The translations under genes were made by a program, and so were the position numbers. The notes under the pieces are model-generated. The model was given only the letters and a program-made list of their open reading frames with translations, ran no database searches and was not told where the DNA came from. A DNA stretch of 64,000 nt, from positions 21,576,001 to 21,640,000 of the forward strand of contig OX485803.1 in the NCBI GenBank assembly GCA_950295325.1. The letters are read 5' to 3'. This stretch comes from Polytrichum commune. Taxonomy: Eukaryota; Streptophyta; Polytrichopsida; Polytrichales; Polytrichaceae. Position 1 is the first letter of the stretch; each line of letters begins with the position of its first letter. Positions 4,166 through 62,678 of this stretch are shown in pieces.

Positions 4166-4510
4166 TCAGAATGAAGATTCGATAGTAATGGATTGCACCA
4201 AATCCAAGGTCGTTACATACTGGCCAGCAAGGGTGCTAGTGTTGCCAGACTGACTGGAGACAACGAAGTAAGTCTTGTCGTTTGAAATCTTGATGTTGGT
4301 GATGGTCCTGGTGTAGGAAATAGAGATGGCGGCTGAGGTGTGCGTGCTGTTGAGTGAGATTGTGACATTTTCGCCAACATCAACAATTCTCTCGTTCACT
4401 AGCACGGCGGCGGTCGACGCATTCCGGATGACGGAGTCGGCCGCTACCAGCCACATGACAAGAACGCCTAACGCCAGTGCCAGTTGAACAGCGGCCTTCG
4501 TGCTGGCCAT
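4166..4510 (-). CDS. Small secreted protein, 114-residue family, copy 1
   Basis: Intronless gene for 114 residues. Residues 1 to about 24 are a classical signal peptide (MASTKAAVQLALALGVLVM then WLVAA) with an A-x-A type cleavage site directly before DSVI. The mature part of about 90 residues has no cysteine, several N-glycosylation sequons (NAS, NVT, NST, NTS) and alternating Val/Ile/Thr typical of beta-strands. The family core is SYTRTITNIKI, then DKTYFVVSSQSGNT, then VTTLDLV, ending E-S-S-F. Three relatives of exactly the same length lie within 6 kb. I do not recognise the family. The features suggest an apoplastic or wall-associated beta-sandwich protein, which is inference. The ATG at 4510 is the only start that gives a signal peptide. 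Confidence 0.85.
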   Translation of the reverse strand: MASTKAAVQLALALGVLVMWLVAADSVIRNASTAAVLVNERIVDVGENVTISLNSTHTSAAISISYTRTITNIKISNDKTYFVVSSQSGNTSTLAGQYVTTLDLVQSITIESSF

Positions 4511-4841
4511 CTCCTTCTAATTCCCTGATACAAAATTCCTCTGGCTCCTTCTAGAAGAAATGAACATGCTACTTATCGGGAATGCAGGATCAGGTTCATG
4601 GTTAACCGTGTAACGTCAAAGAACTGCTCAACGCCAAGATATGCTGGATTTCGAATGAATTACGGTGGGCAAGTGTCTTTGGATGTGAAGTCTCCAGGTA
4701 GATAAATATTATTGCAAATGGATATTTAATTTGGTATATCAAGGACAGAGGCTAAGATGTATAACTACCACGACCTATTATACCTTCACGTAGCCATGGC
4801 GATGAACTAGAGTTGCTGTGAATCTTGTATACAGAAAAGTG

Positions 4842-4851
4842 TATTTATAAA
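4842..4851 (-). promoter_or_regulatory. Candidate TATA box, copy 1
   Basis: On the minus strand a TTATAAATAC motif lies about 335 bp before the ATG of copy 1. It is the best TATA match in this upstream region. The distance implies a long leader, so the assignment is tentative. Confidence 0.25.
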
Positions 4852-4962
4852 CTCAAAGGGGGCACGAAGTGCTACAGACACTGTCGATCACAGAAGGAAA
4901 TGGTTATTATTTCTCAGTATAGAGTAAGTATAATAATTCATGCCGGGGCATTAAGCGTATGA

Positions 4963-5015
4963 ATGACGCAGCACCAAGAGCGTGCCCACCTAATCTCTAT
5001 CTAAAGATACTCAAC
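4963..5015 (-). promoter_or_regulatory. Conserved upstream block, copy 1
   Basis: On the plus strand this reads GACGCAGCACCAAGAGCGTG followed by CCCACCTAATCT. Clearly related sequence occurs at 7,500-7,555 and 10,890-10,950, each several hundred bases upstream of a minus-strand family member. It is either a shared regulatory segment or residue of the duplicated unit. Confidence 0.4.
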
Positions 5016-5550
5016 AACCTCGTGATAGTTGATATCCCCATGGTTGTACCTTTCGGACGACCACACTATGAATAAACACAAAAAGAAAGTGTGACAGAAA
5101 TACTGGAGGTGAACCCTTACTAGCCATGGCCGGAAAAAAAGTTCCCTTAAGATGCAAGCAAGGGCCATTCGACCTTGCAATAACCTGCTAATTTGCTATA
5201 TTCTTGCAGAACAATTGGATGGAATGGAATAGATCAAGTTGTGGCTCAGTGAAAGAATTAAGTCCCTGGAATGTTCGCGCATCGCTACCATCTTGTGTCG
5301 AGTCTTGATGATGATGAGATCATGATGCGAAGGCTGTCGATGCTCTTAGAAAATATAGCGTGCGATTCAGCACGACGCTTTCCTTTACGGAAGAAGACAT
5401 ATTGTGATAAGTTTTCTCTGAAGGTACCCGAGGTTTTTGATTTTCAGTTCTTACAATAAACATGGAGGTGAATGACACAGATTGACCAAACAAAATATTT
5501 CAAACAATGCCTTAAGAAACTTATCTTAAGGTCCGAGATGACCTTAAACT

Positions 5551-5717
5551 ACCGGATGGTGGTGGAGAGATACCCAAATCTCAAGGAAGAGGTTGGCGGT
5601 TCGAATCCCGGCTGTGAAATCTCCTCTCTGCTTGACGGAAAACTTGCCAGGTGGTCAACTGCCTCCTGTGCTTTGGCGTTGACCTTCTGTCAAAAAAATA
5701 ATAATAATAATAATAAT
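5551..5717 (+). mobile_element. tRNA-derived SINE candidate
   Basis: An A-box-like TGGTGGAGAG near 5,559 is followed about 35 bp later by a perfect RNA polymerase III B box, GGTTCGAATCC (5598-5608). A non-tRNA body of about 90 bp follows, ending in A-rich (AAT)n at 5,697-5,717. Head, body and simple-repeat tail in this order are the hallmark of a SINE. The sequence does not fold as an intact tRNA because the T-stem is mispaired. CTTAA occurs on both sides as a possible short target duplication. Confidence 0.55.
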
Positions 5718-5787
5718 CTTAACAAACAAGTGCAACTCAATTTACAAGCACGAACCAGGCTAGGTCACTAGCTCAAAAATTGTCGGA

Positions 5788-5847
5788 ATAATAATAATAT
5801 AATAACAACAACAACAACAACAACAACAACAATAATAATAATAATAA
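5788..5847. repeat. AAT/AAC triplet microsatellite
   Basis: Runs of AAT, then AAC, then AAT triplets about 60 bp long, a short distance after the SINE tail. They may have grown from a second A-rich tail. Confidence 0.9.
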
Positions 5848-6582
5848 ACCAGCGGAAGGCTCCTTGGGCGTGTAACTGTTGATTATGTAAAATAAACAAA
5901 ATTTATTGCCGTACTTTATTGAAAGAAAGTAAAACCAGCTTCTTAAGTACAATTATCAACATGTAAAAGATATTTGTTACTATGAATCATGCTGTCAAAG
6001 CAAGGCTCGACGAAGAATCCCTAGAGAGTCCGACTCTTTTATTTTGGATCCAGGAAAATTAGACCCCATTCTACCACTTTATGACGTCTTATTTCATCTA
6101 TGTCGCTAGGGCGGCTCCGGCGACCACGTTGTGTTGAGCAAATGCTTGGAGCAGACCACTAACTTCACGAGCAAGGTGCCGTGATTATTGTGACAGAGAT
6201 ACTATTTATCAATCAGTAGTCGGAGCTGGCCCCGTGCTCATTATGATTAATTGAAAATGTATTTGAACTCATAGGCTGAATCCGTGAATACTGGTGTCCA
6301 CGTAGAGATTTCCTTAGCACCTGTTCAAGACAACGATCGCAAGTATCATGTTTAGAGCCTAGAACATAAAATCAGCTGAAAACATGCAGTTTATTGAAAG
6401 ATTACCTGACTTACAGGTGCATTAGTAACTTCATTAACAGAAGCAGAGCTCTCGAATTTTATGGCAGGCTTAGATTTGTCACAGAATATCGCATCGTGCA
6501 TAAATGGGCGTAGTAAGGTCAAAGATTGTACTCACTCCGATATATTATAAGATTGAAAAGATTTATAACTTGCACAGTTGAA

Positions 6583-6927
6583 CTAGAATCCAGTCTCAAC
6601 ATGTACAGCTTGCACCAAGTCCAGGGGCGTGACGGGAAATCCATTGAGCATAGAAGTGTTGCCGGACTGGCTTTGGACTATCAAATACTGCTGCTTGTTT
6701 CTGATTTCCACGCTGGTGATGGTCCTGGTATATGTAATGTCCACATGAACTGAGCCTTCGGAAATCACGACTTTGTAAATACTGCTTGAAGCCAGAACGG
6801 TGCCATCTATCAGTACGTCCGCTGATGACAAATTGTTAATGGTGGAATCCCCGGCTGCAAGCCATATGGCGAAGGCCACTACCAACGTGAGCTGAAACGC
6901 AGCAACAATTCTATTGGCGACTGCCAT
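6583..6927 (-). CDS. Small secreted protein, 114-residue family, copy 2
   Basis: Intronless, 114 residues from the ATG at 6927. An in-frame GTG further upstream adds residues that spoil the signal peptide, so 6927 is chosen. The signal peptide is MAVANRIVAAFQLTLVVAFA then IWLAAG, with the mature start at DSTI. The core YTRTITSVEI is followed by QQYLIVQSQSGNTSMLNG, then VTPLDLV, ending E-T-G-F. It has no cysteine. It is divergent from copies 1 and 4 in the middle third (an IYKVVISEGSVHV stretch replaces the GENVTISLNS-type segment), so selection has kept length, ends and core while the centre drifted. Function is unknown. It shares its orientation with copies 1 and 4. Confidence 0.85.
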   Translation of the reverse strand: MAVANRIVAAFQLTLVVAFAIWLAAGDSTINNLSSADVLIDGTVLASSSIYKVVISEGSVHVDITYTRTITSVEIRNKQQYLIVQSQSGNTSMLNGFPVTPLDLVQAVHVETGF

Positions 6928-7036
6928 CCCTTTCCCGACAGAAGCTATAAGTATATAATTAGTGGTCACCGGAACTGTATCAAAAATTATTCTAGTTCAA
7001 TTAGTAGCAGCTTTGTGCAAATCGCTTTGTCTCCAG

Positions 7037-7045
7037 ATATATAAG
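7037..7045 (-). promoter_or_regulatory. Candidate TATA box, copy 2
   Basis: CTTATATAT on the minus strand about 110 bp before the start codon at 6927, at a plausible promoter distance. Confidence 0.35.
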
Positions 7046-7499
7046 CATGTAGAGTATCAGCAAGTGAGAATATTGGCATAAATTGGTGATGCAGCCGCGC
7101 AAGGGAGTGTGTTAGCTAAACGTCCTGAAGGAAGTGATGGCCGTGTACACTAAATCGACATCGCTTCCTTCTTCCGATCAGAGAGGAGTTACATAACTAA
7201 CTTGTGTACGACATGGAGGTGTGATGAAACTAAGCCTGCATTTGATACATATAGTGGAAGAAATTGTGGAATGTAATCATAAGATGTGAATGTAATCATT
7301 TCGTCTGCAGCACTTTAGCACTTCAGCATTTCTGTTGCAGCACGTATTACTATGTAGGTGTACGTTTTCAATTACACTGGACGTAAATGGTTTATACCAA
7401 GACAGATTTTGGTTCTACAAACTGGAAGTAAAGGAGCAGGATCTACTTTTGCATTCCAAAATAAATGGCCCATTTGGTTTAGTCAAGGTCAGGCGTTGA

Positions 7500-7555
7500 G
7501 GTGAGCCACCAGCACCGAGGGCATGCACACCTAATCTTCTGTCAGTCAATATCAG
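7500..7555 (-). promoter_or_regulatory. Conserved upstream block, copy 2 side
   Basis: The plus strand reads CAGCACCGAGGGCATGCACA then CCTAATCT, related to the blocks at 4,963 and 10,890. It lies about 575 bp upstream of copy 2 and also about 350 bp upstream of the divergent copy 3, so it could serve both. Confidence 0.35.
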
Positions 7556-7648
7556 TAGATGACGAGTCGACAAGCTGTAACTGAGACTAACTCTAAATCG
7601 CCTGCTCAATCGAAGACCATAACAAATCTAAACTAATCCCTTGTACAG

Positions 7649-7659
7649 TATATATATTA
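7649..7659 (+). promoter_or_regulatory. Candidate TATA box, copy 3
   Basis: TATATATATTA on the plus strand, about 245 bp before the ATG at 7903. Confidence 0.3.
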
Positions 7660-7902
7660 GGTCACCAACTAAAGCACCACACCCGCACGCAGGTCATTGC
7701 ACTCGAAGTTTCGCACTCCGAAGTGGACACATTCTAATAGTGGAGATTCGATCAACTCTAATTTTGTACTAACCATAGGAGTTTGCTTAGCCTTTAGCCG
7801 TCTACGTTGCCGTGTATCAATTAATTCCTTAAATTAAGACACTGCTGAAATAGATTGATAGATTTCTACCGCATCTATTGGCATAGAAAATTTAGCGCCA
7901 CA

Positions 7903-8247
7903 ATGATGGCTCTTGTCCTGCACATGTTACTGGTAGGAACCATGGGCATATGCATTGCAAATGCCGACTCCACCATCCGGAATTTATCTCGAGTTCCGAT
8001 ATTCCGGGTGAATGATGTCATCGTGCCCCCAGGCGAAGCTATGACAGTGTCGATTGCTAGCAATCGGTCCGGCGCAGCCTACATTTCTGTTACCGGTATT
8101 ATCAGAACAGTCACGAACATCCGAATCGTAAATAACAAGACTTATGTCGCGGTCCCCACTCCGTTTGCCAACCTCACCACTATCGATGGAGTGCCATTGC
8201 CGACCCTGGATCTTGTGGATTACACAACCGTTGAAACTGCATTCTGA
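7903..8247 (+). CDS. Small secreted protein, 114-residue family, copy 3 (inverted)
   Basis: The only plus-strand member, again exactly 114 codons without an intron. The signal peptide MMALVLHMLLVGTMGICIAN then A has the mature start at DSTIRNLS. The core is changed to GIIRTVTNIRI (the YTRTIT motif becomes GIIRTVT). NKTYVAVPT, then NLTTIDGVPL, PTLDLV and a final E-T-A-F follow. Four sequons are present (NLS, NRS, NKT, NLT). The only cysteine lies in the signal peptide. It is the most divergent copy, being head-to-head with copy 2, and may have a different expression or partner. An earlier in-frame ATG at 7855 would give 16 extra residues that destroy the signal peptide, so the ATG at 7903 is chosen. 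Confidence 0.85.
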   Translation: MMALVLHMLLVGTMGICIANADSTIRNLSRVPIFRVNDVIVPPGEAMTVSIASNRSGAAYISVTGIIRTVTNIRIVNNKTYVAVPTPFANLTTIDGVPLPTLDLVDYTTVETAF

Positions 8248-10141
8248 AGTTGTGAAGGTTTGTGCTCGAGCTAATTCCTTCACCTCACAACTCCATGATT
8301 GCCGACATTCGAGTTCTTGGATTCCTTGTGATCAACAGAAGCATGTGTAAATTACAGGATGTTGAAAAAAATTGCTTTAAGATGATCTCCTTAATATACA
8401 CGACATGAGATCTAGATGAAGAATTGGTACCTGTGCTGAATTATGAGCCTGAGCTACTCCATGTGTTGGTGCTCTCGTTTCAGGTCTGGAGCATGTTTCT
8501 TTCGATAATATTTACGAGCAAATTCTGCAAAGCTCGAATAATTTCTGCCAAGTAACGAGCTTCGACGTCGTGACATCGATGCGCCGACCTCCGACTTTGG
8601 GATTGTAGCATGTATATCCTGCCAGTGATGCCTATTTACCTACCACTAATCCAACTACTCCGCAAGAGCCGCTATCCAGGTGACCTTCATGCGTGCAGAG
8701 CTGCGTATTATAAGGTGCAATGATGCTGTAAGATGCTAAATGCAAAGTGGCAGATGCGTCAATAGGTACCTTGCTCAGCAAGAGTTAATGTTTGTACCAA
8801 CTCATTCCAATAAAGATGATATCGAAGGTTCACTGCAGAGCTTTTGTTTCGAATTCGATAAGATGTACCGACCCGAGGTAGTATCACTTTATGAGTGTTC
8901 TTTCTTTACCCTTATGAAACGTCCAGCTTTCAGTTGTTCCCGCGAACATTCGGCTATCGAGAATTGTGAAGAACTCACAGGTGTTCCTGGTATTTAAAAG
9001 ACTGCATCGATGTCATACAATCCTCCACACAAGTATATTCTGTCGGAAGGACATGAGGATGATCACTATATGGGATAGTAATAGTCGAAAAAGCGTACCA
9101 AATTGGACGCAACGCAAAGCAATTCCACCGACGTTGCATCAATTCATGAAATTAGTGAATTCAACTAGTTGGACCTCCCGTTGTTGAGGCAGATCAGGTG
9201 GTTTTTGTGGACATTGAGCACGAAACGCACTTCATGATCATGATGGTTAGAATGGTGAGGTGCGATAATCTTTTCACGGTCGACATACATTTCTTTCTTC
9301 TTTCAGATTCCTCTCTAGAGCCTGGACAATTGCTTACTCTGTATCTCAACTTATGTCAACTTTATTGAGTGAAAGAACTTTGATACAAAAAGCGATCTCT
9401 CTGAATGCAAGGAGAAGATTCTTGAAAGAATCTGAGGTCTCTCTTACGAGTCTTACCGTATACAGCAAAGGTTATATCCTTGCACTTTATGACGTCTATC
9501 TAAGATCATCACTTTATCCTATCTCTCGAATAACTTGCAGTATCTCAGGTCCTACCGAAGCTCATGTACTTTCACCTAGTAGTACTGGCTACTAAATCAC
9601 GAGGCAGACGAGGATCCTTGTTTTATACTCGAGAAGACTCCTCCATTGTCGTTCGCTACTTTAGCATTCAGGTGTCCCTGCACAGCTTTATTGTTCTCGA
9701 CTAATGTATCATCCTCGCTCTGGAAATCGAACGAAAGAGTTTATTGCCACCTGCACCAGATCATCAGCACATACCTGGTCGGGCTGATTATTTCTGCACA
9801 CGAAATGCCTGCATATTTACTCATCTTAATCAAATCATCTCAAACTATTCAAAACACTACAAAATGTGTAAATTGTTGACCGATGACCATCTTGAATACG
9901 CAGATCGTAGTTATGTTGATGAATCATTTAATAATTTAATTTAATACATACAAATGATGACATATTCATCAACCTACGTACGAATGAAATGACTAAAGTG
10001 GTGACCATTTCGTGTACTCAGGTCATGTGCAGTGGATGCGGAAGCTATGGGACGCCATTGAAAAGTAGAGAACACGAAGAGATTTATCAGACTGGAGATA
10101 CACAATGAACCAGAAAAGAAGCGTATGCAAACCTTTATTTC
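8248..10141. other. Spacer between copies 3 and 4, no gene seen
   Basis: Reading frames here are short, lack conserved motifs and do not join across plausible splice sites. I see no fragment of the secreted family, no RNA gene and no clear repeat. Confidence 0.45.
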
Positions 10142-10486
10142 TTAGAATGCTTGTTCAATGAATGCGGCTTCCACAAGGTCGAGAGTTGTCACGGAATTGC
10201 CATCAAGCATCGCAGAAATACCATCCTGATTCTCAACCACAAAGTACTCCTTGTTATTTTTGATCTGGACATTGGTGATGGTTCTGGTGTACATAATGTC
10301 AATTGCGGCTGACGACTCGGTGGATGCGATCGAAACTGTAATCATTTGGCCTGCAGCCACAGTGTTGTCATTCACCGTCATCGCGGCTGCTGACAAATTT
10401 GAAATGGTGGAGTCTGCCACTGCCAACCACATTCCATAGCTTACCACCAGCACCAAGAAGAGAGCACGCTTCATGCTGGTTGCCAT
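10142..10486 (-). CDS. Small secreted protein, 114-residue family, copy 4
   Basis: Intronless, 114 residues. The signal peptide MATSMKRALFLVLVVSYGMW then LAVA has the mature start at DSTISNLS. The core MYTRTITNVQI is followed by NNKEYFVVENQDG, then LDGNSVTTLDLV, ending E-Q-A-F. It has no cysteine and only one clear sequon (NLS), so heavy glycosylation is not a family constant. It is closest to copy 1. The same upstream block occurs at 10,890-10,950. The family is unrecognised, but four preserved reading frames argue that the proteins are made and useful. Confidence 0.85.
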   Translation of the reverse strand: MATSMKRALFLVLVVSYGMWLAVADSTISNLSAAAMTVNDNTVAAGQMITVSIASTESSAAIDIMYTRTITNVQIKNNKEYFVVENQDGISAMLDGNSVTTLDLVEAAFIEQAF

Positions 10487-10889: not shown

Positions 10890-10950
10890 TGACCTGTCAC
10901 ACAACGCAGCACCTAGAGCATGGCTACCTGCTGTCCATCATTCAACATCA
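10890..10950 (-). promoter_or_regulatory. Conserved upstream block, copy 4
   Basis: The plus strand reads ACGCAGCACCTAGAGCATGG, matching ACGCAGCACCAAGAGCGTG upstream of copy 1 at a similar distance (about 410 versus 460 bp from the ATG). Confidence 0.4.
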
Positions 10951-12769: not shown

Positions 12770-15700
12770 TCAAGCAGGGGTAGCATCTTCAACATAAGAG
12801 GCCGGTCGCCACTGTGTGCCATCACCCCCATCCATAAGAGCTATACCGTGCGCTGCCAAATCAGCTCTGATTTGATCAGAGCGTGCATAGTCCTTAGCAT
12901 CCCTGGCAGCAGCTCTTTGTTGCAATTGAGCTGCCAAGTCTTGTGCACTCATGCCTGCTCTCTTCAATGCCTTGACCTTAAGCTCATCCAGCACCTGCCA
13001 AGCCCAATCTCTTTGTTTACTGATTCGCTATGGATAAACTGAAGGTCTGAATGGAGTCCTATTTAATATCCACTGACATTCTTGCAGCTTTAACCAGCCG
13101 ATAAGTGGCAATCTAGTTATTTTGAAGAAAAAGCATGAAAGTCAAAAAATCAACTGACGTATGAAGATCCACCTGACAGCATTATGGATCCTTATCTTAC
13201 ACCACAATAACAACACTCACATCCATTTAGAATTTCAAAGAAATTTTAAGACTTCTACTTGGCCAGTTTAATGGAGTAGAAAGGGTCATTGAAATACCAT
13301 CAGGTAGCTCGGCACATGTAACCCCAGAACATGCAAAACTTCTTCTACTTCGGTTTTGAGACATAGCAATGATGCCAGACGAGTTTTATCCTTGCGGCCC
13401 TGGTAAGAGAACTCTCAGATTACATTGAGGCTGAAATGCAAAAATCTGAACCCAAATTCAGACATGTGATTCTTTAGTAGCCAACACTTGAATTTATACA
13501 CACAATCCTGCAGAAATGAAAAATCTTTGAAAAGTGAGGCAAGGCCTGGGATACCTTGCGAGTGTGCATAAGATCATTCATGTACTTCAGGGGCTCCGAA
13601 AGTGCCGCCACTGCAACAGGAGTGAGCAAATCATCAGCCATAGATGACTTGAAGGCAGCTTTTAAGCTATTGCCAATCTCTGAAGCCTCCTTTGAGGCCC
13701 AACCGGTGTGTTCATTTTGTTCTTCACCCAGTATCTGTTCACAATCTGCTAGTGCCTGTACAGATTGAAACCAGAACACAAATGTGTAAGCTTATCTTGC
13801 CTACATTTGTAGATCTAGGATGCTCAGTATGAACTGACTCCCCAAGAGACATCTTGATGACTAGAAACTTAGCTAGTACATAACAACACAAAAAATGAGA
13901 GTGCCACATTGGCACCTTCATTGACATGATTAAATTTGTGCAATGAAGGCCCAAAACAATCAATGGAATCTACACTCACCAGAGTGCATTCAACATTTTG
14001 ACACTATCTGAAAACAGGAAACATTCATTTTCCAGCAGACATACAACTATTTCACAGAGTACAGGCACCTGGTACCAGGAGATTCTTCTTAAGAGCCCTT
14101 CTTTCAACCATATGGGCAAAAAAATCATAGAAGGCCCCCTAACTCTAGAGGTATGATAATGAGATGCTCTGAAGAGTGTGAGAATTGGAGACATTATCTT
14201 TCAACTGTGGCAGACGCAACATACATGAACAAATTGAGAGAACTTACTTGCAAGAAGTAGAACAAGCGATCAGATGAAAGCTCCAGCTGACGCTTGGAAT
14301 AATTTACAGGTGATCGATAGTGAGTACTCAGCAGAAATAATCGAAGTGCCAGAGGGTGGTACATTTCCATCACCTTCAATCAGCCAATCCACTCCCAAAA
14401 TTAACTCATCATCACTTGAGTCTTATAGGCATGCAATGACTCACTATTTTGAGATGTCAACAACACACTTCACTGTGAACCTCTTTGAATTTTAATAATA
14501 TAACATCATACAGATGCACATCTATAACATCCATTGCCTGTTAATCCAAGTTCGCTCTTGCATTCAAGGGCATGACACATTTCTCTAGTATCAATGCTAT
14601 GACATCATTCACTACTGGATATCAGCAAGGCAGATGTAGAGTTGAGAGAAGTAAATATACCTCCCGGATGGTGAAAAAGTTGCCTAAAGACTTGGACATC
14701 TTCTCTGTGTCAACAGTAACAAAGCCATTATGCAGCCAATATCTCACTTGACTATCTGCACAAGCAGCACAGCTCTGAGCTATCTCATTTTCGTGGTGAG
14801 GGAAAATGAGATCCATACCACCCCCATGAATGTCAAACTTATGCCCCAAGTGTTCTGCACTCATTGCACTGCATTCAATGTGCCAGCCTGGGCGTCCAGG
14901 CCCCCAAGGACTTTCCCAAGCAGGCTCTCCTGGTTTTGTACTCTGCATAGCCACCATATACATGTCTAATCAGCCCCAGATTTACTAAAATAAAATAAAA
15001 TAAAATAAAATAAAATTGCTGCATGATAGAAGACCCTACATGTGGAAACATGACTATCTAAACAACATCAGAAACAAACAAAGATTTGACAGTAGTGAAG
15101 TCCAGACAAAGGTACATAGGGTGTCAATTGACTTTGGACAACCACACAATTCTTTGAATAGTTGCAACTCAAGGTTGCAGTGAAGAATGGGCAAAATCAA
15201 ACACTCTACACATGATTTGCATGGTTTTATAATTTGCATCAAGAAGTTGTGCATAAATTAATATTTTACAGCTGAAAGAATCTAGATCTGGAATTCTTCC
15301 TCACCAGCTGTGAGGGCCCTGACCTTCCAAAGAGCAAAGTCTGCAGGGTTCCTCTTGCGACTGTCAACAGTAACTCGCTCTCCTGCTCGATTTTCATCTT
15401 GTTTCCGTCCAGACAATCGTCCATACATAGGGAAGCTGTCCACTGAAAAGTAGACATCCCCTCCCTCCATGACATAGGCATGCTCATTTTCTACAATCTG
15501 CAATAGAGTCCAGATATAACCTCAAGTGAGAGCAAGCACTTGTGATTTCCACACAACAATCAAATGAGACCGATACTAGACTTGACATAACGTTTTTAGG
15601 GTGGGGTGTGTGAAAGCAAGTTCTAAGACTTGTCCTAAACCCTAATTCAAGGAACTCGCATATGCGACCATGCAAGACTCACCTGCTCAATCATTTTAAT

Positions 15701-17075
15701 TATCTGCGGAATATGCTCTGTAACACGAGGCTCCACAGAAGGTGGCAGGCACCTAAGGAGGGCCATGTCCACCCGAAACTCCTCACAAAATCGTCTGCTC
15801 AACTCTACAGGATCTTCTCCAACTTCATTAGCTCTATTGATGATCTGCATGAACATCATCCATGGTCAATACCCAAATGAAAACTCACATTATGTGGATA
15901 AGATAGCTCAGCTGATGCGCTCATGGAGAGAAAAAAAATGAAAAATTGCATCCCTACGATACCATGATACCCTGATGCCATGATGAAATTCTTCATGGAT
16001 GATTCACCTAAATTCTTGCAATTGCAATAGACCTCTCACATTTTCGGGACACATGAAGTAACATCTGTCTTCCTTAGCAAACTGAACTCTGTCATGAAGC
16101 AAGTTGTCATAGAGCACCCGCCTTAGCTCGTATGTGATCATAATCACGATAGCAAACAAGTCTCTATACATCAGAAAGATATCATAGGCGGACGAAGCCA
16201 CTCATGTACGTTACCTTATCATCGATATCAGTAAAATTGCGAACATATGTGACATCGTAGCCAACGTTCTTCAAGTACCTGGTTGACAAATGCCACGCGT
16301 AACGAGTGAGCGCTTGGATGCGTATATGCAGAGCAGATACGCATCCTCACAAGGTGGATTTCAATTCACTCAAATCATACTATGTTCCTTATCCATCAAC
16401 AATTCAAATTTGAATTTCTCTCTCTGTCTGTGTTTATTACAGTGGGAGTGAGGGGGAAAAAATTCGTGCAACTGACCGGAAGAGAACATCGAAGGCCACG
16501 TAAACACGGGCATGGCCAATATGGCTATAGTCGTAGGATGTCACACCGCAAACATACATACTCACTTTACCAGCCAATTGCGGTTGAAACACTTCTTTCT
16601 GTTTGCTCAAAGTATTGTACAATTGCAATTCGGGCCACTGATGCCTATCGACATCCTCTTTCTCCTTCTCACACTCGGCTCCTACAGCCACGTCACCACT
16701 AACTCCACGCTCACTGCTCTGCAAAGTCGTGCTAGGGTACGACGAGATCCTCCGCCCTCCGTTAGCTGTTCCGAAGCCGACATTGCCCCGAGAAACGGCA
16801 AATGCGGGAAAATTCAATGGAGGACGTGAAATGGGACGGAAATGGGATGCGAAACGCGGGAGAGCCAAGGGGGCGCGACAAGAAGAAGAAAGTGAAGAAG
16901 AGGAGGAAAAAAATCTGGACCGATGCAGTGTGCTTTTTGAGGTAGGAATGCGGGGAACAAGCGAAGCGCCTGTGGTGAGAGTGCAGCAACAGCGGCTTCT
17001 GACTCGCCAGGTGGTGGCCATCGCCGTGGCCATGCTTGTTCTTGTGACTGTAATTGTGAAAGCGACTGCGCTCAC
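12770..17075 (-). CDS. SYCO: Cysteinyl-tRNA synthetase, organellar
   Basis: Class I synthetase that charges tRNA-Cys, here with an N-terminal extension of about 150 residues for plastid and/or mitochondrial import. Nine exons, all phase-consistent: 16477-17075, 16215-16278, 15683-15844, 15324-15497, 14661-14942, 14248-14373, 13555-13755, 13298-13399 and 12770-12994, giving 644 residues. The HIGH motif is at 185-188 and KMSKS at 414-418. Zinc ligands expected from the bacterial enzyme are all present (Cys176 in YVCGVT, Cys357 in GWHIECSAM, His382 and Glu386 in [10 protein letters not shown]). The DALR-type helical C-terminus is covered by the last four exons. The extension is rich in Ser, Arg and Ala, with further Mets at 15 and 19 that could serve as alternative starts. 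The short terminal exons were placed by phase and homology. A MITE-like element begins about 285 bp upstream of the start. Confidence 0.95.
14986..15016. repeat. AAAAT pentanucleotide microsatellite
   Basis: About six TAAAA units inside an intron of the CysRS gene, just upstream of the exon at 14661-14942. Confidence 0.9.
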
Positions 17076-30363: not shown

Positions 30364-31642
30364 ATGGCGAAGAGAGCTCAGACGCGGCAGCAAGTAGATC
30401 TGAGCAGGTTCATTATGCAGGACAAAGAGAATATGTGTTTCTTCCCGAACGTCGCCGAAGAGCCTGCTCAGCGCAGTCCATTGCCTGTGGGGTATCCTCG
30501 GGCGCCTCTGCAAGATATTACCGACATCATCTCGCCTCTCAATGTATGTGATTTCGCGACTTCCTTTTGTCTTCGTCCATCATCGCTGTGTCGTGGGTGG
30601 TACAGTGCAACCCAGCTCTAGTTTTGTTCCACCTTTTGGTTAGCTTAGCTTAGCTTTCGATGAAGTGTATGTCTCAGCATCTAACTTCAAAGCTTCACAT
30701 CAGCCTCGTAATTTTGAAATGTTTTCCTGTTCCTGCTTGAGAGGAAATTTTGAAGTTGTGGGTCCACCCTCTTGCCGGTCAATTCCGAGGTTCATCTGTA
30801 AAATTTGAAATTTCAGTAGAAACTGTAGAATCAGTAGAATTTTCCCTGATGCTGCAGGGAAGCATCAGCTTACCTAAAACCATGATGGGCTGCGCTGCGC
30901 TGCTTTTATGCAGCGAATGCAGGATGCTGATGACGAGGATCAAGGCGGGAAGAAAAAGCGGAAACCGAAACTTAAGAAACCGTTGACACGGTCTTGCCCT
31001 ATTCTGGTTGACACCGAACCTTCCACGAGCTCACAACAGATAACATTGAATGTCGCTGCGGAGACAGGGACCAGGAAGGGCATCCTTAGCAGCCACATGA
31101 ACACAACTGAACGAGTCGAAACCCACCTGAAGAAAACCGTGCGGTTTGCATCATCGTCAGTATCAGAGACAAGCGAGAAATTAAACGTGCACACAGATGA
31201 GTCGTGTGAGGTCAAGACTGTAATTTGTCAAGACCCTACTTCAGAAGTTCATCCAAGCCCTCCCAAGCCCAACACCCGCAGAGCTAAGGCAGCTGGCGAT
31301 GTTGAAATGAGCACACCTTCACCGAAGACCCGGAGAGTGAAGGGCGTTACAGGAGCTGAGGAGTCTGCTGCAGATGCTGAAATGAAGACAATATCGCCAA
31401 AGAGGAAAGTGCCCACCCCGGCAGAAGCAGCTGTTGCTGCTGCTGATGTAGAAATGCCTTCACCGAAGACCAGGAGAATGACTGCGGCCATTGCTGCAGC
31501 CGCAGAAGCTGGATCGATCTTACCCAAGATTACTGCGGAAGCCGAGGAAGTAGGCGCCACTTCACCAAAGAGCCAGAAAATGAAGAGACGAAAAGCCCCA
31601 GCCAAGTCCACTGCGGGAAGGAATGTTGCCAGGTTTCGATAA
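30364..31642 (+). CDS. Disordered protein with KEN, D-box-like, PP1-docking and S/T-P-K motifs; candidate mitotic regulator
   Basis: Two exons (30364-30543 and 30914-31642) encode 302 residues. Exon 1 has a KEN box in MQDKENMCFF and a destruction-box-like RAPLQDITDI, the pair that marks substrates of the anaphase-promoting complex. Exon 2 starts acidic then basic (DADDEDQGGKKKRKPKLKK), followed by HLKKTVRFASSS, which fits the RVxF docking motif for protein phosphatase 1. Repeated PSPKTRRVK, ISPKRKV, PSPKTRRM and TSPKSQKM are typical CDK sites in a Lys/Ala/Pro-rich, low-complexity tail ending RNVARFR. No folded domain is visible. The motif set recalls sororin, PATRONUS or Ki-67/Repo-Man-type proteins, but no family-defining domain was found, so no name is given. 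Exon 2 has a second in-frame acceptor nine bases downstream. Confidence 0.75.
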
Positions 31643-50595: not shown

Positions 50596-53500
50596 ATGGG
50601 ACCGCGTAGGGTCCATGTGGGGAGAATTCCCCATTCAACCACAGCTACTGAGCTGATTGAGTGTTTGGAAAGAGCAGTGGGGAAAGGCACCGTGAAGACT
50701 GTGAACATTCACACGAATCAGCAAACTATCCAGTCGAAGGGGTTTGGGTTTGTGACTTTTAATAATGAACAAGCGGCGGAAAGAGCTGCTATGTTGGGGG
50801 AAAATGGCCACCTAGTTCTACTTAACAATGTTCTCAGAGTGTCCCTGACTGACCATTCGATTGTTCACAGGCCTAATCACACTCTGTCTACATCGGAGAA
50901 TGTAAGCACGTACTGCTAACATCTGTACTTTCTTCTCTTGCGAAATTCTCACGAAATCATCAACCTTTGTTGTGCCGATAAAAATAGAACTAGGACATCT
51001 GCATGCATGAACTACATCTGGATGCGTGCAAAGCACATGTGATTATCACAATTACGTTGTTGTGAGGGAGAGACATATTGATTGTTGAAACAGAGGAGTC
51101 CTGCATATTTGGTAAAGCTCTTGCACATATAGTCTAGGTTGGAGGTGGTAACTTTCTGTGTGGGCGCTTCGAACAGGAAACTGCATTCCTGAACCACATG
51201 TGGATGCGTGCGTAACATCTGTGATCATCATAATTATGTTGTTTTGAGGGAGGCATATTGATTGTTCAAAGAACGGAGTCCTGCATAATTGGTAAACCTC
51301 TTGCAAATAGTTGATGCATATGATCTAGGTCGGAGGTGGTAATTTTCAGTGTGGGCACTTTGAACAGGGCAAACTGTACCTGAGCTGCCTCGTCTCTGAA
51401 GGAACAGCAAGCTGGCAGTGGTCATCAGCCTCCAATGTGTCAACGGAGTTTGACTTCACCAGCCGAAAGTTGCGTTTCACATTGCATGTTGGGAGCGATT
51501 TGGAGAAGCGAGAATACAAGCTGGAATGCGAGTTTGAAGAGATCAGTAGTGTCAGGCTTGTTGCAATACGGGAATTGCCTACAAGGGCCTTATCAGTACA
51601 GGTTAATCCCAATTCATCTGGTGTTTCAAGGGATCCTTCATTTTCGTTTTCTTCATGTTGGTAACATTTCTCCTCTCAAGAGTCTATCGTGTATTTCACA
51701 GGAATACTGTACCATTTTTCAGAGACTAGAGTTCAATCGATGGGTGGGAATGGCAATCACTCACCCAACGATCTTGAGCCATCAGTGGAGCTACAAAATT
51801 TCGTCTGTAATTCTTCTTCATTTGTTTCAAACGCTCAATAAAGCCCAGGATGTTGGAAAGCGCTGGAAGATAAAAGACGCTGTAAAAGGTAATCAGTCAT
51901 TTTAGGTGCCCAGCTGCAGTTCAATCGAATGCACTGGACGCCATTCTTTTGCAAACAGCGATTGGTTCCCAAGGAAGCCCTTGCTTTGGTTAAAATTCTG
52001 TGAGGATGGACATGGTGTAGGATTCTTTTACATCAAGATAAACAATTGCTGTCCTCAATATCAATGTTATGCATCTGTGGTAAGCATGGAGTTCCATACA
52101 ACTTCTCTCCCTCGTGGTAATTGTTTATCTTATAATATCCATGTCATGTGCTTCGACACTGTGGCCTCAACCTAGACTCTTATGTGAATGTGCACTTTCT
52201 AAATGCTTTTAGTGTCACCTGGTACTGATGCCTTTCTGTTCACAGCTGAGAAGCCCACCTCACATTTACCTGCACAAAGCGATGAAGGGAAGGATCAGAG
52301 ACGTGGTAGCAGAAATGTTTTCAATTGTCACAGCCATTGATCCTTTCTACATTCAGACAGAGGAGGAGGAGGAGCTGTGGGTACGTGCGACTGACTTCAC
52401 ACCAAAGAACAGCATTGGCCAGTGCTTGGTCTACATATTGGAGCTCCCAAGTACGACGGCTGCTACTGACTTGAACGATCTTTTCAAAAAACTGGCAGAT
52501 TATGAGCTAGCAAGTTATCCACCTTTGATCCAGGAGTTAATCCTACAGAAAGGAGCTTCTTTCGCTACATCCCAGATCCTTGTTCCAATAGTGCATACCC
52601 CTCCTGGCATTACTGTCAATTTTGAACTTATGTACAAAGTGAACCAGCTGGTGCAAACCTCCAAATTGAGTGGACCGACCCTAGACCACTCCTTCTATAA
52701 TTTGCTACAATCCCATGTGACACCCTTGGAGCATATGAAGCTGATACTGGACAAGATAGGCCAGTCGGCAGATCTGTGTTTGGAGCCTGCAAAATATGTA
52801 AAGGCAGAACTGGAGAAATTACAAGAGTCAGACTCAGGTGCAACATACTCCATCAAACTTGCAGAAGGCTTGATTTGGGTGCGACGGGTTCTTGTTACTC
52901 CTACAAGGCTCTACTGTATGGGACCAGAGGTTGACACCTCCAATCGTGTCACAAGACATTTTGTGAACCACTTGGATAGATTTCTACGAGTATCCTTTGT
53001 TGATGAGAATAAGGAGCCAATGCTTTCCACTGTACTTTCTGTTCCTACAAAAGGGGGAGCTCAGGCTGGCATAGAGGCTGAGAGATCAGAAGTGTATGGC
53101 AGGATCTTGAAAGTTCTGAAAGAGGGACTAACAATAGGCAGCCAAAAATATGAGTTTCTTGCATTTTCTTCAAGTCAGTTGAGGGAGCAGTCTGTCTGGA
53201 TGTTTTCCTCAGATGGTTCTCTGACAGCTGACAGCATCAGGGCATGGATGGGAGATTTCCTCAACTTTCGTAATGTGGCCAAGTGTGCAGCCCGTATGGG
53301 CCAGTGCTTTTCATCATCAACACCCACCCTGGAAGTACAACCCCATGAAGTTGAAGAGATTCCAGATGTTGAGAGAGAGGATGAGTTTGGCTTATCAACA
53401 TATTGTTTCTCAGACGGGATTGGAAAAATATCAAAAGAGTTTGCTGGAGAAGTTGCAAAGAAGTGCAGGGTGGACAAGCTACAGACAGGAATTATACCTT

Positions 53501-56401
53501 CTGCTTATCAAATACGCTATGGAGGATATAAAGGCGTAGTGGCAGTAGATCCAAATTCACGTTTCAAGCTCTCACTCCGGCCTAGTATGAGAAAGTTCGC
53601 ATCAAAACATGTTGGTCTTGATGTTCTGAACACATCACGATTCTTGCCTTCATACCTTAATAGGCAAATCATATCTCTATTATCTACACTAGGAGTAAAT
53701 GACAAAATGTTTGAGCAGATGCAATCTCGTGTTGTCTCAGAGCTGGATGACATGCTGAAGGATCCTGACGTTGCATTGGAGGTCTTACAGGTAGAAAATC
53801 CTCTATTCTTTAATTATGCACATGATCATACTCAGGATTGAATGTTTTCTTCCTTCAGATATATCAGGCAATGTTTCCAATTTAGTAAGTCTGAGGAGCC
53901 TTGAGCATTGCTAATAAAGGATAATGGGTGTAACACCAAGTTTATCTGGGGCTCCGGCATGGTATACTGATAATTCGTTGAATGGCATCTAGGATGTGAG
54001 GCTGCAACATTCTTGATCACCTAGTGCTTCCATCATCTAGCAAACAGGTAGAAGATGTAATTTGTTTCCCTTGTGGATGTTAACTTAAAGTGATATACTT
54101 TGGCATCAAACAGCTAGTTATTTGGTCCATTCTATTGTGGCACACCCATTAACCACAAGCACATTGCAGTTTATAATTGCATATGTTTTTTAGTTTTGCT
54201 CTATTCACACCTGTTAAACCAACCAATCAACCACCCAATGACTGACCCTGGCACTGTTTTATGCAAGTTATGTTGGTCTCTTCTTGGTTTTATTTGTTAA
54301 CTTAATGGAAACTTTTTACCTTGCAATGTTGAAGGTTAATCATTCAGGAGATTCGCATGTAAGGCTGACAGCATTGTTAGCAGCTGGCTATCATCCTCAA
54401 AGAGAGCCATATGTGAGACTCCTGCTCCAGACCTTCCGAGCATCCCAGTTACTTGATTTGCGTAAACGCACCCGGATCCTTGTTCCCAAGGGGAGAGTGC
54501 TGATGGGTTGCCTTGACGAAGAAAAGAAACTTTCTTATGGTGAAATTTTCTTGCAAGTGACACCAGCTGCGGGCAATAGAAAACGGGTGGATGATGGGTT
54601 ATCCTCCTTTCAAAACCATCCAGTCACTCCGAAGGACAATGGAATGGTAGCTCATGTGGTGACAGGTTGGGTGGTGGTTGCAAAAAATCCGTGTTTGCAC
54701 CCAGGTGATATTCGAAGATTGAAAGCTGTTGATGTCCCTGGTTTGCGGCACATGGTTGACTGCCTAGTATTTCCTCAACATGGTCACAGGTGGAATCATG
54801 ACCGCTTCTTTGCTGCTTTCATTTGCTCAGCATCAAATTCAGTAGCACACGTCTTGTTTTTCCTCCAACATGATTGTAGATTTGAATATGTTTGGGAACA
54901 GGTTAGAAAATCTAGGAATGTTTGGTGCAACCTCTGACATAACTTGATTAGATCATGCTGCAGAGATCCTTGGAAGGGGATGATCTGAAGTCTTGAATTG
55001 TGCTAGCTCTTCAGGTGTTTTGAGGACTCACGTTTCGCTTAGGTTCAACTCTTGATGCTTGTTCATGAGATTCTTGTATTATATTTACAGTTTATTCTGA
55101 AATTTTAGTCTGGTTCTGATTTGTGAGTCATGTACAACTACCACTTGAGCTTCCTCATGAACATTTTGGATTTTTGACTTGTGAAAATTTGCATGATGGA
55201 AATTTCAAAAGTATCCTCATTCAAAGTAATGTGAAATGTGCAGACCACACCCGAATGAGTGCTCAGGCAGTGACTTAGACGGAGATCTCTACTTTGTGAG
55301 CTGGGATGGCATGCTCATTCCACCTGCTGTTGATGAACCTATGGACTACTGCTCTCCGGGAGCTGTGAAGCTCGATCATGATGTCAGAATTGAGGCAAGC
55401 CATTGCATTGCATTTACACAAACAGTAATAGTTCACAATCTTGCACTCAAGGTGGAGAGGCAATTGGAATTGTGGTTTAGTTTTTGTGGATATCATTTGA
55501 TTGTGGATTCTCTTTTGTGCAGGAGATTCAAGAATTCTTTGTAAAGTATATGGTCAATGACAGTCTGGGTTTAATTTCCAATGCGCATGTAGTTCATGCT
55601 GACAGTGAGCCAGAGATGGCGCGCAGTGCAAAGTGTCAGGAGCTTGCCAAGCTTGTGTCTATTGCTGTTGATTTTCCAAAGACTGGGGTACCTGCTGTCA
55701 TACCCCAGAATTTACGACCCAAGTGTTACCCAGATTTTATGGAGAAGGGTGATAAAACGACATATCAATCAGAACGAGTTTTAGGGAAGCTTTTCCGATT
55801 AGTGAAGGAGGCATCTAATCAGAAGTTGCCAACTCAGGTAACTAAGGAAGAAATGATACAGGCTTTTGACAAAGACCTGACTGTGGAAGGCTTTGAAGAC
55901 TATTTAGATAAAGCTAAGTTTCACAAGAACATGTATGACAGGAAGCTGATTGGATTGATGAATCAATATGGTGTTGAAACTGAGGCTGAGGCAGTTACTG
56001 GAAACATCCTGACATTGGCAAGGCAGCATCAAAAAAAGAAAGGGGATGTCATTGAGAGGATTCGAGATGCAGTAAGCTCTTTGATTGACGAGGCTCGTCT
56101 ATGGTTTGAAACCAACATTGATGAACACAATGGAAGTGAAGATGATATGTATGCTAAGGCATCAGCTTGGTACCATGTTACGTACCACCTAGACCATTTC
56201 CAGCCTTTTGAATCTGGAAAACGTGAGGTACACTTATTGAGTTTCCCTTGGGCCATTCATGAGGTACTGCTACAGATTAAAGAAGCTGGTGGTCGCCCAC
56301 AAGAAAAGAAAAGGAAACCAATGTCAAACGGTAACACTAACAAAAAGCCAATTGTACTACAGGGTGTCATGGACACTGACATAGGTGGTCCCCTTGGATA
56401 A
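50596..56401 (+). CDS. RDR: RNA-dependent RNA polymerase, RDR1/RDR2 type
   Basis: Copies single-stranded RNA into double-stranded RNA that Dicer-like enzymes cut into small RNAs for silencing. Six exons (50596-50901, 51350-51601, 52246-53790, 54335-54789, 55244-55394, 55523-56401) join in phase to 1,195 residues. An N-terminal RRM-like domain has RNP1 KGFGFVTF at 48-55. WVRATDFTP, WVRRVLVTPTRLYCMGPE, YEFLAFSSSQLREQSVWMF, CAARMGQCFSSS and DGIGKIS...QIRYGGYKGVVAVD follow. The catalytic DLDGD is at 863-867 in ECSGSDLDGDLYF. The C-terminal SAWYHVTYH and LLSFPWAIHEVLLQIK are typical of the RDR1/RDR2 clade, which I cannot subdivide without a tree. Intron 5 appears to be GC-AG. Intron 1 holds a partial duplicate of exon 2. 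The ATG at 50596 is chosen because it opens the RRM directly. Confidence 0.93.
51005..51400 (+). repeat. Intronic tandem duplication including the start of RDR exon 2
   Basis: Two direct units about 182 bp apart (51,011 and 51,193 onward) share GGATGCGTGC, CATATTGATTGTT, GGAGTCCTGCATA, TTGGTAAA and GGAGGTGGTAA. The second unit runs into the true acceptor TTTTCAG|TGTGGGCACTTTGAAC. The first has CTTTCTGTGTGGGCGCTTCG followed by AACAGG, a copy of the exon start whose acceptor AG has become TG. Confidence 0.8.
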
Positions 56402-60485: not shown

Positions 60486-62678
60486 TTACACTACTTCTTT
60501 CTCCAATCGTAAAATGGCCATGAATGCATCTTGGGGGACATCCACCCTGCCAACAGATTTCATCCGCTTCTTACCCTCTGCTTGTTTTTTCAGCAACTTT
60601 TTCTTACGAGTAATGTCACCTCCATAGCACTTGGCCAGCACATCCTTCCGCATGGCTGAGATAGCCTCACTGGCAATCACCTTGGACCCAATGCAAGCTT
60701 GAATTGGGATCTTGAAAAGCTGACGGGGAATCAACTTCTTCAATTTCTGTGTGAGTGCCCGGCCGACATTGTAAGCCTTATCCTGATGGACAATCACTGC
60801 AAGGGGATCAACAATCTCTTCATTGATCAGAATGTCAAGCTTCACCAGTTTGCTTTCTCGGTATCCCTTCACAGAATATTCCATGCTAGCGTAACCCTTG
60901 CTACGCGATTTGAGTTGATCAAAAAAATCCCCCACCATTTCACCCAAAGGCAGCATATATACTAGTGACGCTCGAATTTCAGTAATAAACTTCATCTCCT
61001 TAAATTCACCGCGCCTTTCTTGAGCTAATTCCATGAGGGGCCCAATGTATTCCTTGGGAGTGAGAAGCTCAATCTTCACAAATGGCTCCTCAATTGATTT
61101 ACGCTTCCCTGCTTCCGGAAGAGCCGAAGGATTTGAACATTCTACCACACTGCCATCAACGCAATGTACACGATAAACCACACTAGGAGCAGTGGTGATC
61201 AAATTAAGATCATACTCCCTCTCTAACCTTTCCTGCACAATCTCCATGTGCAAAAGCCCTAAAAACCCGCACCGAAATCCAAACCCCATGGCGCTGGATG
61301 TCTCTGGCTCAAACTTCAGTGCAGCATCATTCAACTGCAGCTTCTCAAGTGCTTCCCGAAGCTCTGTAAATTGATCTGCATCAATTGGAAACAACCCACA
61401 AAACACCATAGGTGTAGCCTCTTGGTAACCCGGAAGAGCCTCAGTAGCCTTCCGCGAATTTGCAGTAATGGTATCCCCAACTCTTGCATCTGCAACGGAC
61501 CTGATGGATGCTGCCAAATAACCCACCTCCCCAGCATAAAGCTCCTTCACAGGCATTTGAGTAGGAGACAAAACCCCAACCTCATCAACTTGATATTCCT
61601 TCCCACTAGCCATAAACTGAACCGTATCTCCCTGCTTCACCTTCCCATCCATAACCCTAAAATACACAATAACTCCTCTATAGGAATCATAGTAGGAATC
61701 AAATATCAAAGCACGGAGTGGCTCATCCGCGGTGTTCTTCGGTGCAGGAATCTTCTTCACCACTGCTCTCAAAATCTCGGGAATTCCAACTCCCTCCTTT
61801 GCTGAGCACAGAATGGCTTCACTGCAATCTAACCCTATAATCTCCTCAATCTCCCTCCTCACTCGCTCAGGATCAGCTCCAGGCAAATCGATTTTATTCA
61901 AAACGGGGATAATCTCTAAATTGGATTCCAGAGCTAAATACACATTAGCCAATGTCTGAGCCTCCACTCCTTGGGAAGCATCCACCACTAACAATGCCCC
62001 CTCACATGCTGCCAATGACCTAGAAACCTCATATGAGAAATCCACATGTCCAGGTGTGTCAATCAAATTCAAACAGTATGCTTCCCCTGTATCATCATCC
62101 ACAAACCTCATCCGGGCAGCTTGCAGCTTGATGGTGATGCCTCTCTCCCTCTCCAAATCCATGTTATCCAGAAACTGTTCCTTCATCTCCCGAGCTAACA
62201 CAGTACCCGTTGTCTGTAACAACTTATCCGCCAACGTGGACTTCCCATGGTCTATGTGTGCTATGATGGAGAAATTCCGGATGTGCGAAATTGGCACTTT
62301 GGCCAACCTGTCCTTGCCATTGTCAATTCCAGCTGCATTTCCTTTCACATCTCCCTTCCCATCGTCATTGCCATTATCCTTTGAGCCCTTCGCAGGTCTA
62401 GCTTCCACTGCCCCTGCCGCCTGTGGACAAAGCCTCAATTTGGCTTCTCTCTCTACCCACCCCGAATTACATGAAGCTCTATCCAAAAACGGTGAAGAAA
62501 TTTCGGACTCGAGTACTCTCTTGCTGCCCAATCTAGTTGAGTGGTTCCTTGGTAAGCGCAGAGAGCATCGGTTGGAGGTGGACGCGTTTTGGCGAGGAAC
62601 AGAGTCGAGTAAGTGTGAGGAGATGATGGATGAGTTAGAAATTCCGGCTGCTGCACCAGACACCGTCATAGACGCCAT
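60486..62678 (-). CDS. LEPA: Chloroplast elongation factor 4 (LepA)
   Basis: Translational GTPase of the LepA/EF4 family, which acts on stalled or mistranslocated ribosomes and assists plastid translation. 730 residues in a single exon. Residues 1 to about 125 form a Ser-rich plastid targeting region plus a Gly/Asp/Lys-rich linker. GTPase motifs are G1 AHIDHGKST at 140-148, G2 ERERGITIK at 176-184, G3 DTPGH at 207-211, G4 NKID at 261-264 and G5 SAKEG. Domains II, III and V-like follow, with the LepA-specific [19 protein letters not shown] and the C-terminal domain [13 protein letters not shown]...[20 protein letters not shown]...KKRMK then [12 protein letters not shown]. The absence of introns contrasts with the intron-rich neighbours. 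A MITE begins about 260 bp upstream of the ATG. Confidence 0.97.

What the first reader, a model, noticed from the sequence alone, without database searches (positions are those of the whole stretch)
4166..10486. Cluster of four intronless genes for an unrecognised secreted protein family, each exactly 114 residues
Seen: four reading frames of identical length, each with a signal peptide ending just before DS(T/V)I. Each has a cysteine-free mature part of about 90 residues, with a YTRTIT-like core (changed in copy 3), a K/Q-x-Y block, a TLDLV or PLDLV motif and a terminal E-x-x-F. Three are in tandem on the minus strand and one is inverted. Strict length and conserved ends with a drifting middle suggest purifying selection on a beta-rich scaffold. 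I know no plant family with these features. An apoplastic, wall-binding or defence role is only inference.
Basis: partly seen in the sequence, partly recalled or inferred. Interest (0 to 1): 0.78.

Follow-up and report, generated by a model that had tools for sequence, protein, structure and literature searches.

The report
Small secreted moss-like protein gene cluster
This plant genome, probably that of a moss, carries a seven-gene family for small secreted-type proteins that matched no described family in our searches; four of the genes sit together behind a shared DNA element, their function is unknown, and their identical length of 114 residues is a coincidence.

Summary
The four intronless 114-residue frames are real and mutually homologous (tblastn E 1e-11 to 1e-29). 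The family has seven loci in this 408-Mb genome: four here, one on C2, and a near-identical pair on C3 and C6. "Exactly 114" is not a family rule: the other three are 120, 116 and 116 aa, and here leaders of 24/26/21/24 and mature parts of 90/88/93/90 happen to add up to 114. Selection is purifying: omega 0.42 in the mature part; C3/C6 differ at 3 of 348 coding but 44 of 719 flanking sites. No relative was found in Pfam, NCBIfam, PDB, viral contigs, prokaryote contigs or plasmids; plant proteomes could not be searched. AlphaFold gave no usable fold (pLDDT 54). New: an N-x-S site at mature position 6 in 7 of 7, mature pI from 4.05 to 9.75, and an upstream element shared by the cluster with three exact copies in the genome, all here. 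Best reading: lineage-restricted secreted glycoproteins, probably extracellular binding proteins; that role is inference.

The parts
4166..4510 (-). family member W4, 114 aa (leader 24, mature 90, mature pI 5.0, four N-x-S/T sequons)
   Evidence: ORF; homology and features
6583..6927 (-). family member W6, 114 aa (leader 26, mature 88, mature pI 4.7, two sequons)
   Evidence: ORF; homology and features
7903..8247 (+). family member W7, 114 aa, inverted and the most diverged in the core (leader 21, mature 93, mature pI 6.3, four sequons)
   Evidence: ORF; homology and features; longest window branch in the tree
10142..10486 (-). family member W10, 114 aa (leader 24, mature 90, mature pI 4.05, one sequon)
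   Evidence: ORF; homology and features
4966..5001 (-). shared upstream element, copy 1, about 456-491 bp upstream of the W4 start codon (letters of the element quoted on the + strand)
   Evidence: blastn; random control; direct repeat D1; genome count
7507..7542 (-). shared upstream element, copy 2, about 580-615 bp upstream of W6 and about 361-396 bp upstream of the divergent gene W7
10904..10939 (-). shared upstream element, copy 3, about 418-453 bp upstream of W10
6928..7902 (.). 975-bp divergent spacer between the start codons of W6 and W7, possible bidirectional promoter
   Evidence: coordinates; element inside it

Best explanation
A small, probably lineage-restricted family of seven intronless genes for secreted, disulfide-free proteins of about 9.5-10 kDa in a plant whose plastid psaB is closest to moss. 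Step 1 (inferred from sequence): a cleaved signal peptide takes the protein into the secretory pathway, with the mature chain starting at DS(T/V)I. Step 2 (inferred): it is N-glycosylated at an invariant N-x-S at mature position 6. Step 3 (inferred): it is released to the apoplast; by eye no anchor or KDEL-type tail is present, but no predictor was run. Step 4 (inferred, least sure): a conserved core with an invariant C-terminal Phe carries a surface whose charge has changed from acidic (W10, net -8) to basic (C3/C6, net +5), as expected of a binding protein retuned for different charged partners such as wall polymers or microbial or self proteins. The window cluster arose by local duplication and its members keep a common upstream element, so shared regulation is likely. 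Shown here: homology, intact frames, purifying selection, charge divergence and the shared element.
For: Seven intact loci found with each of five query members. Leader plus small-residue cleavage context, no Cys or Trp in the mature part, N-x-S at mature position 6 in 7 of 7, pI 4.05-9.75. Omega 0.42 in the mature part with 2dlnL 35.9; C3/C6 coding sites 3 of 348 changed against 44 of 719 in flanks, Fisher P 2e-5, 2 nonsynonymous changes against 16.4 expected. Upstream element: W4-W6 24 of 28 and W4-W10 28 of 36, above the best of 150 random pairs each (21 and 27); three exact matches in the genome, all in this cluster.
Against: No expression, secretion or binding data exist here. The fold is unresolved (pLDDT 54). 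Hydropathy alternation is not above shuffles. For the third pair, W6-W10, the element matches at only 20 of 28, and over 36 bases the best W6-W10 match lies elsewhere. The element is not seen near the C2, C3 and C6 copies. The genome-wide pattern was built from the three copies themselves. Synonymous changes between C3 and C6 are also few (1 against 4.9 expected, P 0.04), so gene conversion could add to the coding conservation. The codon-model tree was assumed; the protein tree supports only the C3/C6 fork strongly.
Confidence: 0.45

Rival explanations
1. Secreted defence proteins or inhibitors that coevolve with microbes, for example antimicrobial proteins or protease inhibitors; clustered copies diversify the contact surface.
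For: Small secreted-type proteins in a local cluster with strong charge divergence; tandem copies diverged to 30-54% identity.
Against: No match to any inhibitor or antimicrobial family in Pfam or NCBIfam; no cysteines; omega well below 1 overall and no sign of positive selection (site models were not run).
Confidence: 0.25
2. Vacuolar or storage proteins: the signal peptide leads to the vacuole, and the conserved hydrophobic C-terminal end acts as a sorting signal.
For: The C-terminal Phe is invariant in 7 of 7 and the chain always ends there.
Against: The C-terminal residues may simply be a core strand; composition is not that of a storage protein and the gene number is small. C-terminal vacuolar signals are recalled, not tested.
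Confidence: 0.12
3. A diverged member of a known small beta fold (cupin, PA-IIL-type lectin, DUF7748, thaumatin or expansin C-terminal domain) that sequence searches miss.
For: Low-confidence models are all-beta in the mature part. Foldseek lists several cupins and the lectin LecB among weak matches. DUF7748 shares a similar opening N-x-S/T pattern and occurs 52 times in the genome.
Against: Best Foldseek E is 1.4, with 0 matches at E <= 0.001; profile comparison with 10 DUF7748 proteins gives probability 0.3% over 6 columns; no hit of these Pfam families at E <= 10.
Confidence: 0.35
4. Not functional genes: chance frames or transposon debris.
For: Transposon pieces lie near the C2 and C6 copies: a gag-type protease and a hAT dimerisation domain.
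Against: Seven intact frames under purifying selection. The 1.55-kb spacer at 8500-10050 finds only itself in the genome (very common words are skipped by that search). Seven loci in all, not a repeat number.
Confidence: 0.03

Closest known systems
Lineage-specific (orphan) small secreted protein families of plants (kind recalled, not a database family)
   Same: Short intronless genes, signal peptide, small mature chain, tandem copies, no recognised domain
   Different: No cysteines at all, one invariant N-x-S, and a cluster-specific upstream element; restriction to one lineage not testable here
DUF7748 (PF24928), an uncharacterised domain present 52 times in the same genome
   Same: About 90 residues; N-x-S/T near the start followed by hydrophobic stretches; one member about 2 kb from the C6 copy
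   Different: No signal peptide seen in the frames read, conserved C-C and a different motif set; no profile similarity
Perfringolysin O, part of the chain (PDB 2bk2 and others)
   Same: Best PDB profile match, 55 columns, E 0.04
   Different: Not significant in a search of 177,635 sequences and covers one stretch only; treated as chance

Membership tests
DUF7748 (PF24928) | Score over Pfam's cut-off of 25 bits | tested here: not met
   No DUF7748 hit for any of 7 members at E <= 10
DUF7748 (PF24928) | Profile-profile similarity | tested here: not met
   hhalign probability 0.3%, 6 aligned columns, using 10 of the 15 DUF7748 loci in hand
Thaumatin-like proteins (PF00314) | Many conserved disulfide cysteines (recalled) and the Pfam profile | tested here: not met
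   0 Cys in 7 of 7 mature parts; no Pfam hit
Expansin C-terminal domain / grass group-2 pollen allergens (PF01357, recalled) | Pfam profile and aromatic wall-binding residues including Trp | tested here: not met
   No such hit at E <= 10; 0 Trp in 7 of 7 mature parts
Cupins and PA-IIL-type lectins | Fold | tested here: inconclusive
   Model pLDDT 54; weak Foldseek matches only, best E 1.4
Lineage-specific secreted protein family | N-terminal signal peptide | tested here: inconclusive
   Sequence features fit in 7 of 7 and models show an N-terminal helix; no signal-peptide predictor was available
Lineage-specific secreted protein family | Absent outside the lineage | tested here: inconclusive
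   No relative in viral contigs, prokaryote contigs or plasmids; plant, algal and fungal proteomes not searchable here

The most novel reading that the evidence does not exclude
An undescribed protein family with a disulfide-free extracellular fold not yet in structure libraries, in which one conserved, glycosylated scaffold has been turned from acidic to basic between copies, and whose cluster is run by a dedicated upstream element that occurs nowhere else in the genome.
Probability: 0.2. Interest if true: 0.55.

Novelty: new member of a known kind. Interest (0 to 1): 0.36.

Why it matters
If confirmed, it adds a defined seven-gene secreted family to the poorly known bryophyte secretome, with two direct handles for tests: an invariant glycosylation site and a cluster-specific upstream element. 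Secreted families without a known domain are common in plants (recalled), so interest stays moderate until a structure or phenotype is known.

Tried and rejected
Strict 114-residue length as a sign of constraint: rejected; it comes from compensating leader and mature lengths.

DUF7748 relationship: raised by a neighbour of the C6 copy and a similar opening motif; no sequence or profile support. No paper in the held library has the word DUF7748.

Perfringolysin O (E 0.04; 0.53) and Collagen_bind (E 0.0098, below its cut-off, one member of seven): treated as chance.

Transfer from prokaryotes: no relative in viral contigs (one peptide pattern), genome contigs (single protein W10, close relatives only) or plasmids (W10; one partial hit, E 0.3). 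A profile search of bacterial genomes, PHROGs, PADLOC and the phage collection was not made.

Weak extra hits: C6:23364861 and C44:418 (E 0.067 each) have no ATG frame of 60 aa or more at the match; two C4 hits (E 3.8 and 4.1) have stops inside. None was counted.

TATA-like boxes upstream of the four genes lie at different distances and were not used as evidence.

Organism: first guessed a liverwort (listing, passages: Blasia assemblies are 377 and 390 Mbp). The psaB search then pointed to moss. Species not identified (listings only).

Papers: one search for moss orphan secreted proteins (listing only) showed nothing describing this family; that does not show that it is unpublished.

Full report
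Observation. The four frames exist where stated: 4166-4510 (-), 6583-6927 (-), 7903-8247 (+) and 10142-10486 (-), called W4, W6, W7 and W10 here. Each is an uninterrupted ATG-to-stop frame of 114 codons. Identities to W4 are 41, 39 and 50%. tblastn of all seven family members against the window at E <= 1 finds these four places and one 16-residue match at E 0.36.

Length. Taking the mature start at DS(T/V)I, the leaders are 24, 26, 21 and 24 residues and the mature parts 90, 88, 93 and 90; the equal totals are a coincidence. The three other members have 120, 116 and 116 aa with a mature part of 90 each.

Family in the genome. The window is C1:21576001-21640000 of a 408-Mb, 64-contig assembly. 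Searches with five of the seven members (W10, W7, W4, C3, C2) each return the same seven loci: four in the window, C2:47358226 (-), C3:2278155 (+) and C6:27713160 (-). All seven frames are intact. alone adds four weak hits (E 0.067 to 4.1), which were not counted. Weak relatives can be missed by this search.

C3 and C6 copies. They share a block from about -340 to +790 around the start codon at 93.5% identity over 1130 columns, and a 110-bp piece that lies about 500 bp further upstream in C3. Elsewhere the two 10-kb stretches do not align at E 1e-5, so this looks like a small dispersed duplication.

Selection. A codon model (GY94 M0, own script, assumed tree) gives omega 0.417 for the mature part (2dlnL 35.9 against omega 1), 0.627 for the leader (2dlnL 2.9, not significant) and 0.475 for the whole (2dlnL 35.9). 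In 21 pairwise mature comparisons all point estimates are below 1, but divergence is near saturation and 4 of 21 cannot reject 1 (W6-W7, C3-C6, W4-C3, W4-C6). The C3/C6 pair is better evidence: 3 of 348 coding sites differ (2 nonsynonymous, 1 synonymous) against 44 of 719 flanking sites (summed by me from the 50-base bins -350 to -1 and +350 to +749). Fisher P is 2e-5; 16.4 nonsynonymous changes are expected at the flank rate (P of 2 or fewer 1e-5). Synonymous changes are also few (1 against 4.9, P 0.04), so gene conversion may contribute. The protein tree strongly supports only the C3/C6 fork; two of four inner branches are weak.

Protein features. The mature parts have no Cys and no Trp, 23-39% S+T+N, and 9.5-10.0 kDa. 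One N-x-S sequon is at mature position 6 in 7 of 7. W4, W6, W7 and W10 carry 4, 2, 4 and 1 sequons in all; C2, C3 and C6 only this one. Mature pI is 5.0, 4.7, 6.3 and 4.05 in W4, W6, W7 and W10, 8.4 in C2 and 9.75 in C3 and C6. Invariant mature positions are D1, S2, I4, N6, S8, T45, I51, N53, Y57, G72, L78, D79 and F90, numbered in W10. Against a simple beta argument, hydropathy alternation at lag 2 is not above shuffles in any member (p 0.23-0.87). AlphaFold makes the mature part all-beta but at pLDDT 43.6 and 54.3, too low to use. Foldseek on the second model has 0 matches at E <= 0.001 and a best E of 1.4.

Upstream element. A repeat of about 36 nt lies at 4966, 7507 and 10904. It was found by blastn between upstream regions and by the repeat finder, where it is the top direct-repeat family. 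It lies about 418 to 615 bp upstream of W10, W4 and W6 in one orientation; the middle copy also lies about 361-396 bp upstream of the inverted gene W7, which shares a 975-bp divergent spacer with W6. W4-W6 match at 24 of 28 bases and W4-W10 at 28 of 36, above the best of 150 random pairs each (21 and 27). W6-W10 is weaker: 20 of 28 at the same place, and over 36 bases its best match lies elsewhere; no random control was run for that pair. A 22-nt degenerate pattern built from the three copies has 3 perfect matches in the genome, all here, none with one mismatch and 19 with two (the reversed control pattern has 3 in all). No match within 4 mismatches lies in the 10-kb stretches around the C2, C3 and C6 copies. 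It is either a cluster-specific regulatory element or the best-kept remnant of the duplicated unit; I favour the first because the rest of the spacers no longer align.

Known families. No member passes a Pfam cut-off (best E 0.0098) and no significant NCBIfam match exists (best E 0.016). The PDB profile search gives perfringolysin O at E 0.04 and flagellin at 0.6, taken as chance. Viral contigs, prokaryote contigs and plasmids gave no relative, with the limits stated under Tried and rejected. A DUF7748 gene about 2 kb from the C6 copy was tested as a possible relative: the genome has 52 DUF7748 hits at E <= 0.01, and 10 of the 15 in hand, aligned, show no profile similarity to this family.

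Organism. C8 is a 146,561-bp plastid contig. Its psaB is closest to PDB chains 8htu, 6l35 and 7ksq (1698-1702 bits; next 1665). 6L35 is from the moss Physcomitrella patens (PMC7884438, passages); that the other two are moss is recalled. Liverwort or hornwort chains may be absent from the PDB, so 'bryophyte, probably moss' is the safe statement.

Mechanism. Shown: a real, intact, selectively maintained seven-gene family with charge divergence, and a shared upstream element in the cluster. Inferred from sequence: secretion and one conserved N-glycan. Inferred with less support: a compact disulfide-free extracellular binding protein whose copies differ in surface charge. Defence or inhibition is a close rival, and a diverged known fold cannot be excluded.

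Noticed in passing
window 14622-17033 (-): Exons of a cysteinyl-tRNA synthetase (tRNA-synt_1e), the nearest named gene to the cluster that was tested.
   Followed up: partly
window 50596-56401 (+): RNA-dependent RNA polymerase gene: an RRM exon followed by RdRP exons.
   Followed up: partly
window 60486-62678 (-): 730-aa single-frame LepA-type GTPase (GTP_EFTU, LepA_C).
   Followed up: partly
window 30908-31642 (+): 244-aa frame with repeated SPK(T)RR-like motifs and no Pfam match at E 0.001.
   Followed up: no
G000, for example L027:7057-7524 (-) and L029-L042: DUF7748 (PF24928) has 52 matches at E <= 0.01 in this genome, several in local clusters, and none in the 14 control genomes.
   Followed up: partly
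L026 and L027 (C3 and C6 copies): The C3 copy has about 500 bp between two stretches that are contiguous upstream of the C6 copy, as if inserted in C3 or lost in C6.
   Followed up: no
G000:C1 and C7: LFY-type SAM domain (PF01698) matches at four places, three of them strong.
   Followed up: no
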